A stretch of 64,000 bases of DNA from an uncultured Holophagaceae bacterium (GTDB taxonomy: Bacteria; Acidobacteriota; Holophagae; Holophagales; Holophagaceae), in assembly GCA_903857495.1 (NCBI GenBank), contig CAIOFF010000070.1:1-64000 (forward strand), in the 5' to 3' direction. The notes below the pieces were generated by a model that saw only the letters and a list, made by a program, of their open reading frames with translations, ran no database searches and was not told where the DNA came from. The position numbers were made by a program, and so were the translations under genes. Shown here piece after piece: positions 24,787-29,222 of this stretch. How positions within the stretch are numbered: the first letter of the stretch is position 1; each line of letters opens with the position of its first letter.

Positions 24787-26448
24787 TCAGTGCTGGTAGG
24801 TGCTGATGTCCCGGTCCTTGGTTTCCTTCAGGAACAGGAAGCCGATGACCACGGTGATGAGCGCCACGATGATCGGATACCAGAGGCCGTAGTAGATGTT
24901 GCCCTTCAGGGCCACGATGGCCGTCGCGATGAGGGGCAGCATGCCGCCGAACCAGCCGTTGCCGATGTGGTAGGGCAGCGACATGGAGGTGTAGCGGATG
25001 TTGGTGGGGAAGAGCTCCACCAGGAAGGCCGCGATGGGCCCGTAGACCATGGTCACGTAGATGAGCATGATGAACAGGATCAGCAGGGTCATGGGGTAGT
25101 TGACCCTGGACTTGTCGGCTTCCTTGGGATATCCGAGATCGACCAGCGCCTTCTTGAGAGCGGCTTCCGAGGCGGCACTCCAGCCCTCGATCGTGGTGGT
25201 CGTGACCTGGCCGGTGGTGGGGTTCTTGCCCTGGAGGGTAGCGACAACCTTCTTGCCCTCGATGGGGGCGACCTTGTTGAAGTTGAGGCCCTGCTTGCCG
25301 AAGAAGTCGTTCACGCGGTCCAGCTCGGAGAACTTGCTCCAGGGGCCCACGAAGAGGTTGAAGGTCTCGTCGGCAGGGTTTCCGGCCACGGTGATGACGG
25401 TGGTGTTCTGGAACGTCTCCAGGGCGGGGTTCACGTAGTGCGTGAGGGCCTTGAAGAGCGGGAAGAAAGTGAGGGCGGCGATGAGGCAGCCCGTCAGGAT
25501 GATCTTCAGGCGGCCGATCTTGTCCGACAGCCAGCCGAAGAAGATGAAGAAGGGCGTGCCCAAGAGCAGGGAGGTACCGATGAGGATGTAGGTGGTGGCG
25601 AAGTCCAGCTTCAGGGTGATCTGGATGAAGAACAGCGCGTAGAACTGGCCGGTATACCAGACCACACCCTGGCCTGCGGTTGCGCCCAGGAGGGCGAGCA
25701 GCGCGTACTTGTTGTTGGGGTACTTGAGGAAGCTGTCGGAGAGGGGGGCCTTGGAGGTCTTGCCCTCGGCCTTCATCTTGGTGAAGACGGGAGACTCGTG
25801 GAGCTTCAGGCGGATCCAGACAGAGACGGCCAGCAGGAAGATGGACATCCAGAAGGGGATGCGCCAGCCCCAGGAGGCGAAGGCTTCCTTGCTCATGGTG
25901 GAGCGGCAACCGAGGATGATGCCCAGGCAGAGGAAGAAGCCCACGGTGGCCGTGGTCTGGATCCAGCTGGTGTTGTAGCCGCGGCGATCATGGGCAGAGT
26001 GCTCGGCCACGTAGGTGGCGGCACCGCCGTACTCACCGCCCAGGGCCAGACCCTGGAGGAGGCGCAGGGTGACCATGATGATGGGGGCCCACCAGCCGAC
26101 GGTCGCGAAGGTCGGCAGGAGGCCGACGCCGAAGGTGGACATGCCCATGACGACGATGGTCACGAGGAAGGTGTACTTGCGGCCGATCAGATCGCCGATG
26201 CGACCGAACACCAGGGCGCCGAAGGGGCGGACCAGGAAGCCCGCAGCGTAGGCGGCGAAGGCGGACAGCAGGGCGGCCGTCTCGTTCCCCTTGGGGAAGA
26301 ACAGGGTGGCGAAGAAGGGTGCCAGGGTGGCGTAGAGGTAGAAGTCGTACCACTCGAACACCGTCCCCACGGACGATGCGATGATCACCATCCGTTCTTC
26401 CTTGGTGAGTGGCGTCCTTTCGGCGACTTGCTCAGTTGCGATGGCCAT
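24787..26448 (-). CDS. MHS-type MFS metabolite:H+ symporter
   Basis: 553 residues with 12 predicted helices. Signatures of the metabolite:H+ symporter branch: VFEWYDFYLYATLAPFFA in helix 1, RPFGALVFGRIGDLIGRKYT in loop 2-3, and LRLLQGLALGGEYGGAATYV. A soluble insert of about 110 residues (NPALETFQ... to ADKSRVNYP) lies in the second half, outside the membrane; I recall this as common in one MHS subfamily. Near the C-terminus is NIRYTSMSLPYHIGNGWFGG. Substrate probably a carboxylate or similar small acid; proximity to acs is only suggestive. Confidence 0.88.
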   Translation of the reverse strand: MAIATEQVAERTPLTKEERMVIIASSVGTVFEWYDFYLYATLAPFFATLFFPKGNETAALLSAFAAYAAGFLVRPFGALVFGRIGDLIGRKYTFLVTIVVMGMSTFGVGLLPTFATVGWWAPIIMVTLRLLQGLALGGEYGGAATYVAEHSAHDRRGYNTSWIQTTATVGFFLCLGIILGCRSTMSKEAFASWGWRIPFWMSIFLLAVSVWIRLKLHESPVFTKMKAEGKTSKAPLSDSFLKYPNNKYALLALLGATAGQGVVWYTGQFYALFFIQITLKLDFATTYILIGTSLLLGTPFFIFFGWLSDKIGRLKIILTGCLIAALTFFPLFKALTHYVNPALETFQNTTVITVAGNPADETFNLFVGPWSKFSELDRVNDFFGKQGLNFNKVAPIEGKKVVATLQGKNPTTGQVTTTTIEGWSAASEAALKKALVDLGYPKEADKSRVNYPMTLLILFIMLIYVTMVYGPIAAFLVELFPTNIRYTSMSLPYHIGNGWFGGMLPLIATAIVALKGNIYYGLWYPIIVALITVVIGFLFLKETKDRDISTYQH

Positions 26449-26795
26449 GTTGTCTTGCCTCCTTGGGGTGAAGATGGGGTTGGATCTGGACTGCTAACGC
26501 TCAGGCAGGTGATGAAGTCGGGTCGAGCCGGCCAGGCCCCGAATGTCGTGTCCTCCCTCAGAATCCCCTTTCTGGGTGCCGACTCGGCCAGGGTCGACAA
26601 AGTCTCCTGCCACCTGTCCGGATTTCACCGGAGCAGGAGGCAATGAGAGCTGAAGCGTTATGAGAACCACGACGGACGAGCCATCGTATGGATCGAGTTG
26701 GTTGGGTAAGCTGTCCCCTAGGTAACGCCTTCCTCCGGGTAAGGTCAAGAGAGATTCCGCCCCTTTGTGCAGAAAAATTTAGGTTGAGCCCAAAG
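26449..26795 (-). promoter_or_regulatory. long 5' region of the MHS transporter gene
   Basis: About 350 bp upstream of the transporter start, GC-rich and without a convincing gene. It contains a hairpin with arms ctcctgc/gcaggag (26604-26610/26633-26639) and an inner tccgg/ccgga stem. The Shine-Dalgarno AAGGAGG lies 9 nt before the ATG. No known riboswitch class could be fitted. Confidence 0.4.
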
Positions 26796-26882
26796 TCACA
26801 AAACTTGATTTAAAAGGATGTTCAGATCATCTTCGGATAATTCGTCCAACATAATTTCCTGCTTTTTCCTAATCAAATACAT
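26796..26882 (-). CDS. possible small ORF in AT-rich island (28 or 18 residues)
   Basis: A short leftward frame from ATG 26882 gives 28 residues. An internal ATG at 26852 gives 18 residues (MLDELSEDDLNILLNQVL) and is preceded by AGGAAATT, a good Shine-Dalgarno. The product is acidic and amphipathic. Base composition is far more AT-rich than the rest of the window. A possible promoter lies just upstream. It could be a leader peptide, a small regulatory protein, or chance; no homologue is recognised. Confidence 0.35.
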   Translation of the reverse strand: MYLIRKKQEIMLDELSEDDLNILLNQVL

Positions 26883-26892
26883 ACATCAGCTT

Positions 26893-26920
26893 GTAATATA
26901 CCGCCACACAATTGCCACAA
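26893..26920 (-). promoter_or_regulatory. candidate sigma70 promoter for the small ORF / transporter leader
   Basis: Read leftward: -35 TTGTGG (26920-26915), 16-bp spacer, -10 TATTAC (26898-26893). The match is moderate. It would initiate just upstream of ATG 26882. The same AT-rich block could hold the rightward promoter for the metallophosphoesterase. Confidence 0.35.
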
Positions 26921-27023
26921 GACCTTAGCTTTGGCCCCATGGTCGGCCGAGAACCGGTTGTCCAGGGTGCCGAAACCCTCCGACCCCCTATCATGTTCAA
27001 GACCCCCGCCCCCAGGACGCCCC

Positions 27024-27764
27024 ATGCGCATTGCCCTCATGGCCGACCTCCACGCCAACCGGCGCGCGCTGGAAGCCTGTCTGGACCATGCCCAGGCCCA
27101 CGCGGTCGACCGGCTGGTCTTCCTGGGGGATTACGTCGGCTATGGCCCCGAGCCCAGCGAGACCCTGGCGCGGGTCATGGCCGAGGCTGCGAAGGGCGCC
27201 ATCGCCGTCGCCGGGAACCACGACCAGGCCGTCGGCCAGGAACGCGAGACCATGACCTCCGATGCGGAATTCGCCATGGCCTGGACCCGCGGCCAGCTGG
27301 GCACCGAGGCCCGCGAGTTCCTGGCCAGCCTGCCCCTGCGTTTCGAGGACGACACTCGCCTCTACGTGCATGCCAGCCCCCAGACCTACCCCGAGTGGAT
27401 CTACGTCAACGACGGCCCCGCCGCCAAGCGGGCCCTGGAGGCCAGCCGCGCTCAGACGGTCTTCTGCGGGCACACGCACGTCGCCGCGCTGCATGGCATC
27501 ACCGCCACTGGACAGCTGGTGTCCTTTCAGCCCGTGCCCTCGGTCCCGATTCCCCTGCCCCGGCACCGCCGCTGGCTGACGGTCGTTGGCGCCGTGGGCC
27601 AGGCCCGCGACGGGGACCCGGCTGCGGCCTACGCCGTGCTGGATACGGGCCGCTCCGAGATCACCCACTTCCGGGTGCCCTACGATGTGGAGGCCGCGGC
27701 GGTGGCCATCCTCCGCGCCGGGCTGCCAGCCTCCCTCGCCGCCCGACTCCGGAAGGGATCCTGA
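27024..27764 (+). CDS. calcineurin-like metallophosphoesterase
   Basis: 246 residues from ATG 27024, preceded by AGGA and immediately starting the fold (MRIALMADLHANRRAL). The five-block dimetal motif is complete: D-x-H in ADLHAN, GDYVGYGPEP, GNHD, a His in YVHASPQ, and GHTHVA. The family includes phosphodiesterases and protein phosphatases; the GDYVGYGPEP block is typical of a COG0639-like bacterial group. The kinase/USP gene follows after only 3 nt, so the two are co-transcribed and may act as an opposing phosphatase-kinase pair (inference). Confidence 0.9.
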   Translation: MRIALMADLHANRRALEACLDHAQAHAVDRLVFLGDYVGYGPEPSETLARVMAEAAKGAIAVAGNHDQAVGQERETMTSDAEFAMAWTRGQLGTEAREFLASLPLRFEDDTRLYVHASPQTYPEWIYVNDGPAAKRALEASRAQTVFCGHTHVAALHGITATGQLVSFQPVPSVPIPLPRHRRWLTVVGAVGQARDGDPAAAYAVLDTGRSEITHFRVPYDVEAAAVAILRAGLPASLAARLRKGS

Positions 27765-27767
27765 GCC

Positions 27768-29222
27768 ATGACCGGGCCGCGCATCGAGACCGGAGGCACG
27801 CTGGATGGCTTCCTGATCGGGGAGAGGATCCACTGCGGGGGCATGGCCTCCATCTGGTCCGTGTCCCACCCGGACCACAGCTTTCCCCTCCTGATGAAGG
27901 TTCCCGTCCTGTCCGAGGGCGTGGATCCCGCGGCCATCGTGGGCTTCGAGATGGAGCAGATGATCCTGCCGCGCCTCTCGGGCCCCCATGTGCCCCGGTT
28001 TGCCGCCCAGGGGGACTTCGATGTCCAGCCCTACCTGGTCATGGAGCGCATCCCCGGACCCTCCCTGCTGCCGCTCCTGACCGAGCTCCCCCTGCCCTGG
28101 CCGGCCGTGGCCAAGCTGGGCACGCGGATCGCCCTCGCCCTGGATGACCTGCACCGCCAGCACGTGGTGCACCTGGACGTGAAGCCCTCCAACCTGCTCA
28201 CCCGGCCTACGGGCGAGATCGTGCTCGTGGACTATGGCCTCTCCCACCATGACGAGCTCCCGGACCTGATGGGCGAGGAGTTCCGGCTGCCCTACGGCAC
28301 CGCGCCCTACATGGCGCCGGAGCAGGTCCTGGGCCAGCGCCGCGATCCCCGCAGCGACCAGTTCGCCCTGGGTGTCCTCCTGTATTTCTTCCTGACCGGC
28401 GTGCGGCCCTTCGGCGACCCCCAGCGCCTGGCGGGCCTGAAGCGACGCCTCTGGCGCGACCCCGTCCCGCCCCGGCGCCTGCAGCCCGAGTGCCCGCCCT
28501 GGCTGCAGGAGGTGATTCTCCGGTGCCTGGAGGTCCACCCGGCCTGGCGCTACCCCACCGCCGCCCATCTGGCGATGGCACTCCAGCATCCGGACCAGGT
28601 CAAGCTCACGGCCCGCTCGGAGAAGCTGAAGCAGGATCCCTTCACCACGGTCCTGCGCCGCCGCTTCCGGGAGCAGCCCCAGGTCTCGGCCATGGCCAAG
28701 GCGCCTGCGCGGCATGACGGGGACGCGCCCATCCTGGCCGTCGCCATCGACCTCTCACCGGCCGCCGCCCCCATCGCCGAGACCCTGCGCACCATGGTCG
28801 CGCGCATGCTGACCACCCTGCCCGGGGCCCGGGTCGCCTGCCTGAACGTCCTCAAGCAGGGGCGCATCACCCTGGATGAGACCCTGGACGCCCAGGGGCG
28901 GAACATCCACCACCAGCGCCTGGTGGAGCTGCGGAACTGGGCGATCCCCCTTGAGCTGGACGAGGGCCGCATCAGCTTCCACGTCCTCGAGTCCACGGAC
29001 CCCGCCTCGGCGATCCTGCACTACACCAGCTCGAACCAGGTGGATCACCTGGTCCTCGGCGCCCGGGCCAGCTCGCTGCGCCGCACCCTGCTGGGAAGCG
29101 TGTCCAGCCAAGTGGCCGCCCAGGCGCCTTGCACGGTGACCGTGGTGCGCTCACGCCGGCTGCGCACCTCGGATCTGCCCGTCAGCAAGGACGAAGAGTC
29201 CGACTCCTGGACGGTCGGCTGA
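27768..29222 (+). CDS. Ser/Thr protein kinase fused to a universal-stress-protein domain
   Basis: 484 residues. Residues ~10-275 form a PknB-type kinase with Gly-rich loop GERIHCGGMASIW, ATP Lys in LLMKVPV, catalytic loop HLDVKPSN (non-RD: HLD replaces HRD), DYG for DFG, and YMAPEQ. No transmembrane segment is seen. After a basic linker, residues ~325-460 form a USP-like domain ending LGARASSLRRTLLGSVSSQV and APCTVTVVRS, close to the USP ATP-binding signature. Key kinase residues (K, D, N, D) remain, so activity is plausible. Probably a cytoplasmic kinase regulated by its nucleotide-binding USP domain. Confidence 0.88.
   Translation: MTGPRIETGGTLDGFLIGERIHCGGMASIWSVSHPDHSFPLLMKVPVLSEGVDPAAIVGFEMEQMILPRLSGPHVPRFAAQGDFDVQPYLVMERIPGPSLLPLLTELPLPWPAVAKLGTRIALALDDLHRQHVVHLDVKPSNLLTRPTGEIVLVDYGLSHHDELPDLMGEEFRLPYGTAPYMAPEQVLGQRRDPRSDQFALGVLLYFFLTGVRPFGDPQRLAGLKRRLWRDPVPPRRLQPECPPWLQEVILRCLEVHPAWRYPTAAHLAMALQHPDQVKLTARSEKLKQDPFTTVLRRRFREQPQVSAMAKAPARHDGDAPILAVAIDLSPAAAPIAETLRTMVARMLTTLPGARVACLNVLKQGRITLDETLDAQGRNIHHQRLVELRNWAIPLELDEGRISFHVLESTDPASAILHYTSSNQVDHLVLGARASSLRRTLLGSVSSQVAAQAPCTVTVVRSRRLRTSDLPVSKDEESDSWTVG

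What the first reader, a model, noticed from the sequence alone, without database searches (positions are those of the whole stretch)
27024..29222. Phosphatase beside a kinase fused to a universal-stress-protein domain
Seen: a complete calcineurin-type phosphoesterase 3 nt ahead of a PknB-like kinase (non-RD, DYG) with a C-terminal USP domain retaining the ATP-loop signature. Known: USP domains bind nucleotides; kinase-USP fusions are not among the well-studied arrangements. Inference: a compact nucleotide-sensing phosphorylation switch. This is my best candidate for an undescribed system in the window.
Basis: partly seen in the sequence, partly recalled or inferred. Interest (0 to 1): 0.6.

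Follow-up and report, generated by a model that had tools for sequence, protein, structure and literature searches.

The report
Kinase–phosphatase pair beside acetate uptake genes
Two neighbouring bacterial genes, a phosphatase-like enzyme and a protein kinase fused to a stress-protein domain, are inherited together as a fixed pair in two phyla and tend to lie beside acetate-type uptake and activation genes, so they probably form an undescribed on/off switch for carbon uptake, although no activity has been tested.

Summary
A 246-aa metallophosphoesterase (MPE, 27024-27764) lies 3 nt ahead of a 484-aa Hanks-type kinase with a C-terminal USP domain (27768-29222). Catalytic residues are present, the kinase is non-RD, and both genes are under purifying selection. 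One detail is wrong: the USP loop is a shortened variant (G-x-x-A-8x-GS), not the canonical G-2x-G-9x-G(S/T).

The fusion is not new. It was described in 2005 and NCBI names it [quoted passage not shown]. What I found no record of, in the literature I could search, is the system around it:
- The MPE sits directly upstream in 78 of 80 loci; one exception is a contig edge, the other a degenerate gene.
- In Rhizobiales the pair often has an FNR/FixK box about 57 nt upstream (11/81, against 9/1107 other genes).
- It travels with a Deh4p-like (haloacid/acetate-type) permease and, in the window's genus, acetyl-CoA synthetase.
- In one genus clade, permease and pair are replaced at the same site by ActP/DUF485 plus a DUF294 nucleotidyltransferase and an exonuclease.

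Best reading: a nucleotide-sensing phosphorylation switch gating monocarboxylate uptake or activation. The pairing is secure; target, sensing and phosphatase activity are inferred.

The parts
27024..27764 (+). calcineurin-like metallophosphoesterase (MPE), 246 aa, with complete di-metal site motifs DxH...GDYVGYG...GNHD...H...GHxH
   Evidence: ORF and Pfam; closest solved structure 3rqz by sequence (E 1.9e-35) and by fold (TM 0.87); AF2 pLDDT 95
27768..29222 (+). Hanks-type Ser/Thr kinase (about residues 10-285), about 35-residue linker, USP domain (about 321-465); non-RD (HLD), DYG
   Evidence: ORF and Pfam; AF2 pLDDT 84, pLDDT below 50 only in linker 307-318, loop 436-442 and C-tail 469-484; kinase half matches PknA/PknB
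29052..29099 (+). USP nucleotide-loop region (residues 429-444, ..GARASSLRRTLLGS), shortened variant
   Evidence: alignment of 47 relatives; UspF-like alignment without gaps in the loop
26989..26994 (+). TATCAT, conserved -10-like hexamer about 30 nt upstream of the MPE start in most genus members (putative promoter of the pair)
   Evidence: footprint alignment of 12 intergenic regions; the strict sigma-70 scan found no full promoter
24787..26448 (-). Deh4p-like MHS-family MFS permease, 553 aa, with a long hydrophilic loop at about 340-447; divergently transcribed from the pair
   Evidence: NCBIfam TIGR00883 5e-105 (below its cut-off), hydropathy, Deh4p topology paper PMC2777183
22548..24500 (-). 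acetyl-CoA synthetase (acetate--CoA ligase), 650 aa
   Evidence: TIGR02188 974 bits against cut-off 725
26449..27023 (.). divergent intergenic region between permease and MPE, with a conserved block at 26700-26729 on the permease side

Best explanation
MPE and kinase-USP are a two-gene writer/eraser cassette. The kinase phosphorylates a target protein, the USP domain tunes kinase activity by binding an adenine nucleotide (ATP/AMP-type ligand or a signalling nucleotide), and the co-translated MPE reverses or limits the signal. The most likely target is short-chain monocarboxylate (acetate) uptake and activation: the Deh4p-like permease and/or the AMP-forming acetyl-CoA synthetase. This would let the cell throttle acetate entry when low oxygen or low energy makes ATP-consuming activation costly. 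Shown here by computation: the pair as a conserved unit, intact active sites, purifying selection, FNR/FixK-type boxes in Rhizobiales, co-occurrence with the permease, and exchange for another acetate-permease module. Inferred: kinase activity, nucleotide binding by the USP, the protein-phosphatase role of the MPE, the target, and the direction of control.
For: (1) Pairing: MPE directly upstream, same strand, gap usually -4 to +6 nt, in 78/80 loci, plus the 6 additional K-USP genomes of an Alphaproteobacteria sample and 2 Acidobacteriota outside the genus. (2) Catalytic residues invariant in both. (3) Purifying selection in MPE, kinase and USP. (4) FNR/FixK boxes at -53 to -79 in 11/81 MPE promoters against 9/1107 other genes in the same loci. 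(5) Permease link: present in exactly the 38 of 47 genus genomes that carry the pair and absent from the 9 that lack it; in Alphaproteobacteria 6/7 K-USP genomes carry it against 31/282 without (Fisher p=1.9e-5); adjacent in unrelated lineages in different orders (L047, L059, L098, L104, L115, L120). (6) Acetyl-CoA synthetase or a related AMP-forming ligase divergent from the pair in the window's genus, Rhodobacter CZR27 and an unrelated Acidobacteriota family. (7) In clade G001 the same ACS-rplQ site holds DUF485/ActP-type symporter plus CNBD-CBS-DUF294 and exonuclease; that set recurs as acs-DUF485-ActP-DUF294-exonuclease in Paracoccus. (8) Precedents from papers: Deh4p carries haloacetate and recognises acetate (PMC3552994); short KdpD couples a USP domain binding c-di-AMP to serine phosphorylation that shuts a transporter (PMC11018627).
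Against: No activity, ligand or phosphosite is shown. Most Alphaproteobacterial pairs have neither permease nor ACS within 10 kb. The pair-less genus genomes with usable rpoA form one clade, so the 38/9 concordance is essentially one evolutionary event. The USP loop is non-canonical. The MPE lacks PPP protein-phosphatase signatures and resembles an Ap4A hydrolase fold. The Fisher test ignores phylogeny. FNR boxes were not found in the window's genus.
Confidence: 0.4

Rival explanations
1. The MPE is not a protein phosphatase but a nucleotide hydrolase (Ap4A/dinucleoside polyphosphate or cyclic/linear nucleotide). It removes the ligand that the USP domain senses, so the pair is a signalling-nucleotide sensor plus its own clean-up enzyme. 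AMP-forming acyl-CoA synthetases are known (own knowledge) to make Ap4A as a by-product, which would connect ACS to the signal.
For: Nearest biochemically named structural relative is Streptococcus SapH, asymmetric Ap4A hydrolase and phosphodiesterase (TM 0.73-0.75, 20% identity), ranking above PP1/PP2A-type phosphatases; motifs are GDYVGYG and GNHD rather than GDxxDRG and GNHE; Rhodobacter CZR27 places an adenylate kinase between permease and acs beside the pair; the USP domain is nearest to solved USPs of which one is labelled ATP-binding.
Against: The closest relative by sequence and fold, 3rqz (37%), has no known substrate; invariant one-to-one pairing with a kinase rather than with nucleotide synthases favours protein phosphate; fold similarity at 20% identity does not fix the substrate.
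Confidence: 0.25
2. A general low-oxygen or energy-stress phosphorylation switch with unrelated or many targets; the permease and ACS are only frequent neighbours.
For: FNR/FixK boxes in Rhizobiales; USP genes are predicted FNR and DNR regulon members in Alphaproteobacteria (PMC2908626); only 17 of 84 loci have the permease nearby and the other neighbours are lineage-specific.
Against: Permease co-occurrence 6/7 against 31/282, repeated adjacency in different gene orders, and exchange as a unit with another acetate-permease module.
Confidence: 0.28
3. An anti-phage defence kinase of the PD-T4-6 or MADS type.
For: PADLOC PD-T4-6 (3.6e-49) and mad6 (8.2e-41) models match the kinase domain.
Against: These are kinase-domain matches only; NCBIfam MAD6 scores 104 bits against a cut-off of 460; the locus is a stable site between ACS and the rplQ-rpoA ribosomal operon in the genus, with no defence genes seen; FNR-type boxes in relatives; MPE has no PADLOC hit.
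Confidence: 0.03
4. Chance neighbours with no shared function.
For: Two-gene overlaps are common in compact genomes.
Against: Linkage persists across Alphaproteobacteria and Acidobacteriota at 42-63% protein identity.
Confidence: 0.01

Closest known systems
[quoted passage not shown] (NCBI product name; STYK-USPA fusions of PMC1262709, 2005)
   Same: Same architecture and full-length homology: 51-63% identity over 93-94% in Rhodobacter, Pseudoroseomonas and Shinella; 44% in Bosea
   Different: Described only as a domain architecture; no function, no phosphoesterase partner, no permease link or regulation reported in what I could search
KdpD with Usp domain (short KdpD of Deinococcus geothermalis; S. 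aureus KdpD)
   Same: USP domain reads a nucleotide and controls a serine kinase that acts on a transporter (PMC11018627); c-di-AMP binding by the USP domain (PMC4686210)
   Different: KdpD uses a Walker-type atypical serine kinase with or without a histidine kinase, and a K+ pump; here it is a Hanks-type kinase with a phosphoesterase partner and probably a carboxylate permease
PknB/PrkC-type kinase with PP2C phosphatase operons (PstP, PrpC; own knowledge)
   Same: Co-encoded kinase and phosphatase
   Different: Those kinases are membrane-anchored RD kinases with PASTA sensors and a PP2C partner; here a non-RD kinase with USP and a calcineurin-like partner
3rqz (Sphaerobacter metallophosphoesterase) and SapH/Spr1479 asymmetric Ap4A hydrolase
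   Same: Same MPE subfold (TM 0.87 and 0.73-0.75)
   Different: 3rqz has no known function; SapH is only 20% identical and its activity cannot be transferred
Deh4p/Dehp2 haloacid permeases (MHS family)
   Same: Neighbouring permease has the same length (553 against 552 aa) and the same long loop at about 340-450
   Different: Substrate of the window protein untested; Deh4p sits with a dehalogenase, not with ACS and a kinase pair

Membership tests
Hanks-type (eukaryotic-like) Ser/Thr protein kinase | Pkinase domain above curated cut-off | tested here: met
   90.1 bits against 31.7
Hanks-type (eukaryotic-like) Ser/Thr protein kinase | Catalytic Lys, Glu, HxD Asp, Asn, DxG Asp and APE | tested here: met
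   All present in the window protein; K44, E61, H135, D137, K139, D155, G157 and E185 invariant in 47 relatives; N142 is Ser in 5
PknB/PASTA kinase family | HRD arginine and PASTA repeats | tested here: not met
   HLD/HHD/HFD, never HRD; NCBIfam PknB_PASTA 139.6 bits against cut-off 450; USP instead of PASTA
Bifunctional Ser/Thr kinase/USP (NCBI-named fusion) | Pkinase followed by USP with homology along the full length | tested here: met
   51-63% identity over 93-94% of the protein; alignment A1
Universal stress protein (UspA) superfamily | Pfam Usp above cut-off | tested here: met
   59.4 bits against 24
ATP-binding USP subgroup | G-2X-G-9X-G(S/T) loop | tested here: not met
   G-x-x-A-8x-GS; second Gly absent and loop one residue short in nearly all relatives. 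The ungapped match to the solved UspF loop leaves nucleotide binding open
Calcineurin-like metallophosphoesterase superfamily | D-x-H, GD, GNH(D/E), H, GHxH metal ligands | tested here: met
   D8, H10, D36, N65, H66, H116, H150 and H152 invariant in 44 sequences
PPP-type Ser/Thr protein phosphatase | GDxxDRG and GNHE signatures | tested here: not met
   GDYVGYG and GNHD; PP1/PP2A rank below 3rqz and SapH in the fold search
Asymmetric Ap4A hydrolase (SapH-like) | Ap4A hydrolysis | not testable with these tools
   Only fold similarity at 20% identity
Deh4p-like MHS permease (neighbour) | MHS homology with an unusually long periplasmic loop at about 337-454 | tested here: met
   TIGR00883 5e-105, below its full-length cut-off; hydrophilic stretch 340-446 between hydrophobic segments; literature values. 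No direct alignment to Deh4p was made
PD-T4-6/MADS defence kinases | Full-length match above curated cut-off and defence context | tested here: not met
   Kinase-domain matches only; MAD6 104 bits against 460

The most novel reading that the evidence does not exclude
A portable, undescribed control cassette in which a USP-gated Hanks kinase and its dedicated metallophosphoesterase reversibly gate a Deh4p-type acetate/monocarboxylate permease or acetyl-CoA synthetase. It would be functionally interchangeable at the same chromosomal site with a second control cassette (CBS/cNMP-DUF294 nucleotidyltransferase plus exonuclease) that serves ActP-type permeases: two unrelated adenylate-sensing writer/eraser pairs for one metabolic step.
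Probability: 0.25. Interest if true: 0.75.

Novelty: new variant of a known kind. Interest (0 to 1): 0.5.

Why it matters
Bacterial kinase-USP fusions have been known for 20 years as an architecture without a function. This work gives them an obligate partner (the MPE), a regulatory setting in one order (FNR/FixK, low oxygen) and a candidate target (acetate-type uptake/activation), each of which can be tested. If correct, it would extend USP-controlled transporter phosphorylation, now known for KdpD and K+ uptake, to carbon uptake by a Hanks kinase. It would also point to a parallel, non-homologous control module (DUF294 plus exonuclease) at ActP loci.

Tried and rejected
Sigma-54 promoter upstream of the pair: none found. 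FNR/FixK box in the window's own genus: none found. ACS as obligate partner: rejected, because the ACS orthologue is present in seven pair-less genus genomes and absent from most Alphaproteobacterial loci. Treating the 38/9 genus concordance as independent evidence: rejected after the rpoA tree put the five pair-less genomes with a usable rpoA in one clade. Defence-system membership: rejected. PASTA-kinase membership: rejected. Paper searches for the named fusion plus a phosphoesterase partner, and for SapH, returned nothing relevant. A direct alignment to Deh4p was not made because I had no record of it in the collections.

Full report
Observation. The two ORFs are exactly as described: MPE 27024-27764 and kinase-USP 27768-29222, plus strand, 3 nt apart. 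Pfam places Metallophos_2 on the first and Pkinase plus Usp on the second, all above cut-off. Catalytic residues of both enzymes are intact in the window proteins and nearly all are invariant across 44-47 relatives. The kinase is non-RD throughout its family (HLD, HHD or HFD). The USP loop is G-x-x-A-8x-GS, one residue shorter than the canonical ATP loop and lacking the second glycine. The solved UspF sequence aligns through the loop without a gap, so nucleotide binding remains possible but the canonical signature is not retained. dN/dS is about 0.06-0.11 between close genus members for MPE and kinase, with the kinase and USP halves equally constrained.

The fusion itself is known. [quoted passage not shown] Proteins with the NCBI name [quoted passage not shown] are up to 62% identical to the window protein over 94% of its length, and an unannotated Shinella copy is 63% identical. 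So "undescribed" does not apply to the fusion.

The pair is a unit. A scan of 84,980 bacterial and archaeal species genomes returned at least 567 candidate relatives (not all checked to be fusions); the best 80 come mainly from Alphaproteobacteria and Acidobacteriota. In 78 of 80 an MPE orthologue (42-98% identity, two of them cut by a contig edge) lies directly upstream on the same strand, with a gap that is mostly between -4 and +6 nt. Of the exceptions, L075 has only 125 nt before the contig edge and L127 has a degenerate kinase N-terminus. In a sample of 289 Alphaproteobacteria, 7 genomes carry the fusion: six were checked afresh and one is L098; all have the MPE. Two Acidobacteriota outside the window's genus also have it, one of them the same genome as L058. 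In the genus, genomes without the fusion also lack the MPE orthologue and keep only a 35-39% paralogue. The genus includes Geothrix paludis: locus L054 has the same coordinates as G025.

Regulation. A strict FNR/FixK-type box (TTGAY-N4-RTCAA) lies 53-79 nt upstream of the MPE start in 11 of 81 loci, Rhizobiales or unclassified proteobacterial, against 0.04 expected from shuffles and 9 of 1107 other genes in the same loci. The spacer sequences differ between lineages while the position is kept. No such box was seen in the window's genus, where a conserved TATCAT lies at 26989-26994.

Neighbours suggest a target. In the window the pair is divergent from a 553-aa MFS permease and an acetyl-CoA synthetase (974 bits against a cut-off of 725). 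The permease belongs to the MHS family and has a long hydrophilic loop at about 340-447. Deh4p, a haloacid permease that also recognises acetate, is 552 aa with a unique loop at 337-454 (PMC2777183, PMC3552994). Of all neighbour families, this permease is the main one besides the MPE that recurs across distant lineages (17 of 84 loci), in operon-like, divergent and convergent arrangements. In 47 genus genomes the permease is present in exactly the 38 that carry the pair and absent from the 9 that do not. The ACS orthologue is present in seven of those nine. In the Alphaproteobacteria sample the permease occurs in 6 of 7 genomes with the fusion and 31 of 282 without it (p=1.9e-5, uncorrected for phylogeny). 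Of 42 genomes known to carry the pair, 38 carry the permease at E<=1e-90, and one more has a divergent copy beside the pair. Around the permease in Alphaproteobacteria, ACS-related ligases (38-60% identical) lay in the fetched region in 6 of 40 cases, directly after the permease in L181 and L207, and ActP or DUF294 relatives in 3. A ligase 40% identical to ACS is also divergent from the pair in an unrelated Acidobacteriota family (G644).

A natural exchange. In pair-less G001 the same interval, between ACS and rplQ, holds a DUF485 protein, an SSS-family (ActP-type) symporter, an RNase_T-type exonuclease and a cNMP-CBS-DUF294 nucleotidyltransferase. The same set occurs as acs-DUF485-cation acetate symporter-DUF294-(response regulator)-3'-5' exonuclease in Paracoccus, and as DUF4212-symporter-DUF294-exonuclease in Ruegeria. 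So the permease plus kinase/MPE unit and the ActP plus DUF294/exonuclease unit occupy equivalent places beside ACS. The five pair-less genomes with usable rpoA form one clade, so this counts as a single exchange. It is nevertheless the most informative clue that the kinase/MPE pair is the control part of a carboxylate-uptake module.

How it probably works. I propose that the USP domain reads an adenine nucleotide and sets the kinase, that the kinase acts on the permease or ACS, and that the MPE undoes or limits this. The direct precedent is short KdpD: binding of c-di-AMP to its USP domain activates a serine kinase that shuts the K+ pump (PMC11018627). The main rival is that the MPE is a nucleotide hydrolase. 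Its best structural match, 3rqz, has no known function, the next, SapH, is an asymmetric Ap4A hydrolase, and PPP phosphatases rank lower. Its motifs are not those of PPP phosphatases. I cannot separate these with sequence data. A second rival is a general low-oxygen switch with other targets.

Structure. The kinase-USP model (pLDDT 84, pTM 0.68) gives confident kinase and USP domains joined by a poorly predicted linker (307-318). The USP nucleotide loop (436-442) is also of low confidence. The MPE model is of high confidence (pLDDT 95, pTM 0.92).

Limits. No activity has been measured. The 80 loci are the closest relatives, so more distant fusions without an MPE may exist. Co-occurrence tests are not corrected for phylogeny. 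Literature searching covered open-licence PMC papers only, so "not found described" is weaker than "undescribed".

Noticed in passing
L168 3699-8526 (genome G001, between ACS and rplQ): In the pair-less clade the site holds DUF485, an ActP-type symporter, an exonuclease and a cNMP-CBS-DUF294 nucleotidyltransferase. The NTase/exonuclease pair looks like a second, unrelated writer/eraser cassette for acetate permeases and recurs with acs and ActP in Paracoccus (L237).
   Followed up: partly
L169, L170, L171 and L172 (G019, G027, G065, G011): Other members of the pair-less clade have a second acetyl-CoA synthetase-like gene (44-48% identical) near the first ACS at this site.
   Followed up: no
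26700-26729: Block GGTTGGGTAAGCTGTCCCCTAGGTAACGCC on the permease side of the divergent intergenic region is conserved in most genus members; a likely promoter or operator of the permease-ACS side.
   Followed up: no
G000:C61:55336-56061 (own genome): A 36% identical MPE paralogue of about 252 aa; relatives of it are found in nearly every genus genome searched, including the six pair-less ones in that search. Its neighbours were not examined.
   Followed up: no
L047 1978-2631: In Rhodobacter CZR27 an adenylate kinase gene lies between permease and acs next to the pair, as expected if AMP from acetate activation has to be recycled.
   Followed up: partly
L235 8300-13100: In Acidobacteriota genome G644 the pair is followed by what look like formate dehydrogenase subunit genes and preceded by an AMP-forming ligase.
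   Followed up: no
G000:C59:79603-79947 (own genome): A fourth USP domain of the genome lies in an open frame of 896 codons, possibly another multidomain USP protein.
   Followed up: no
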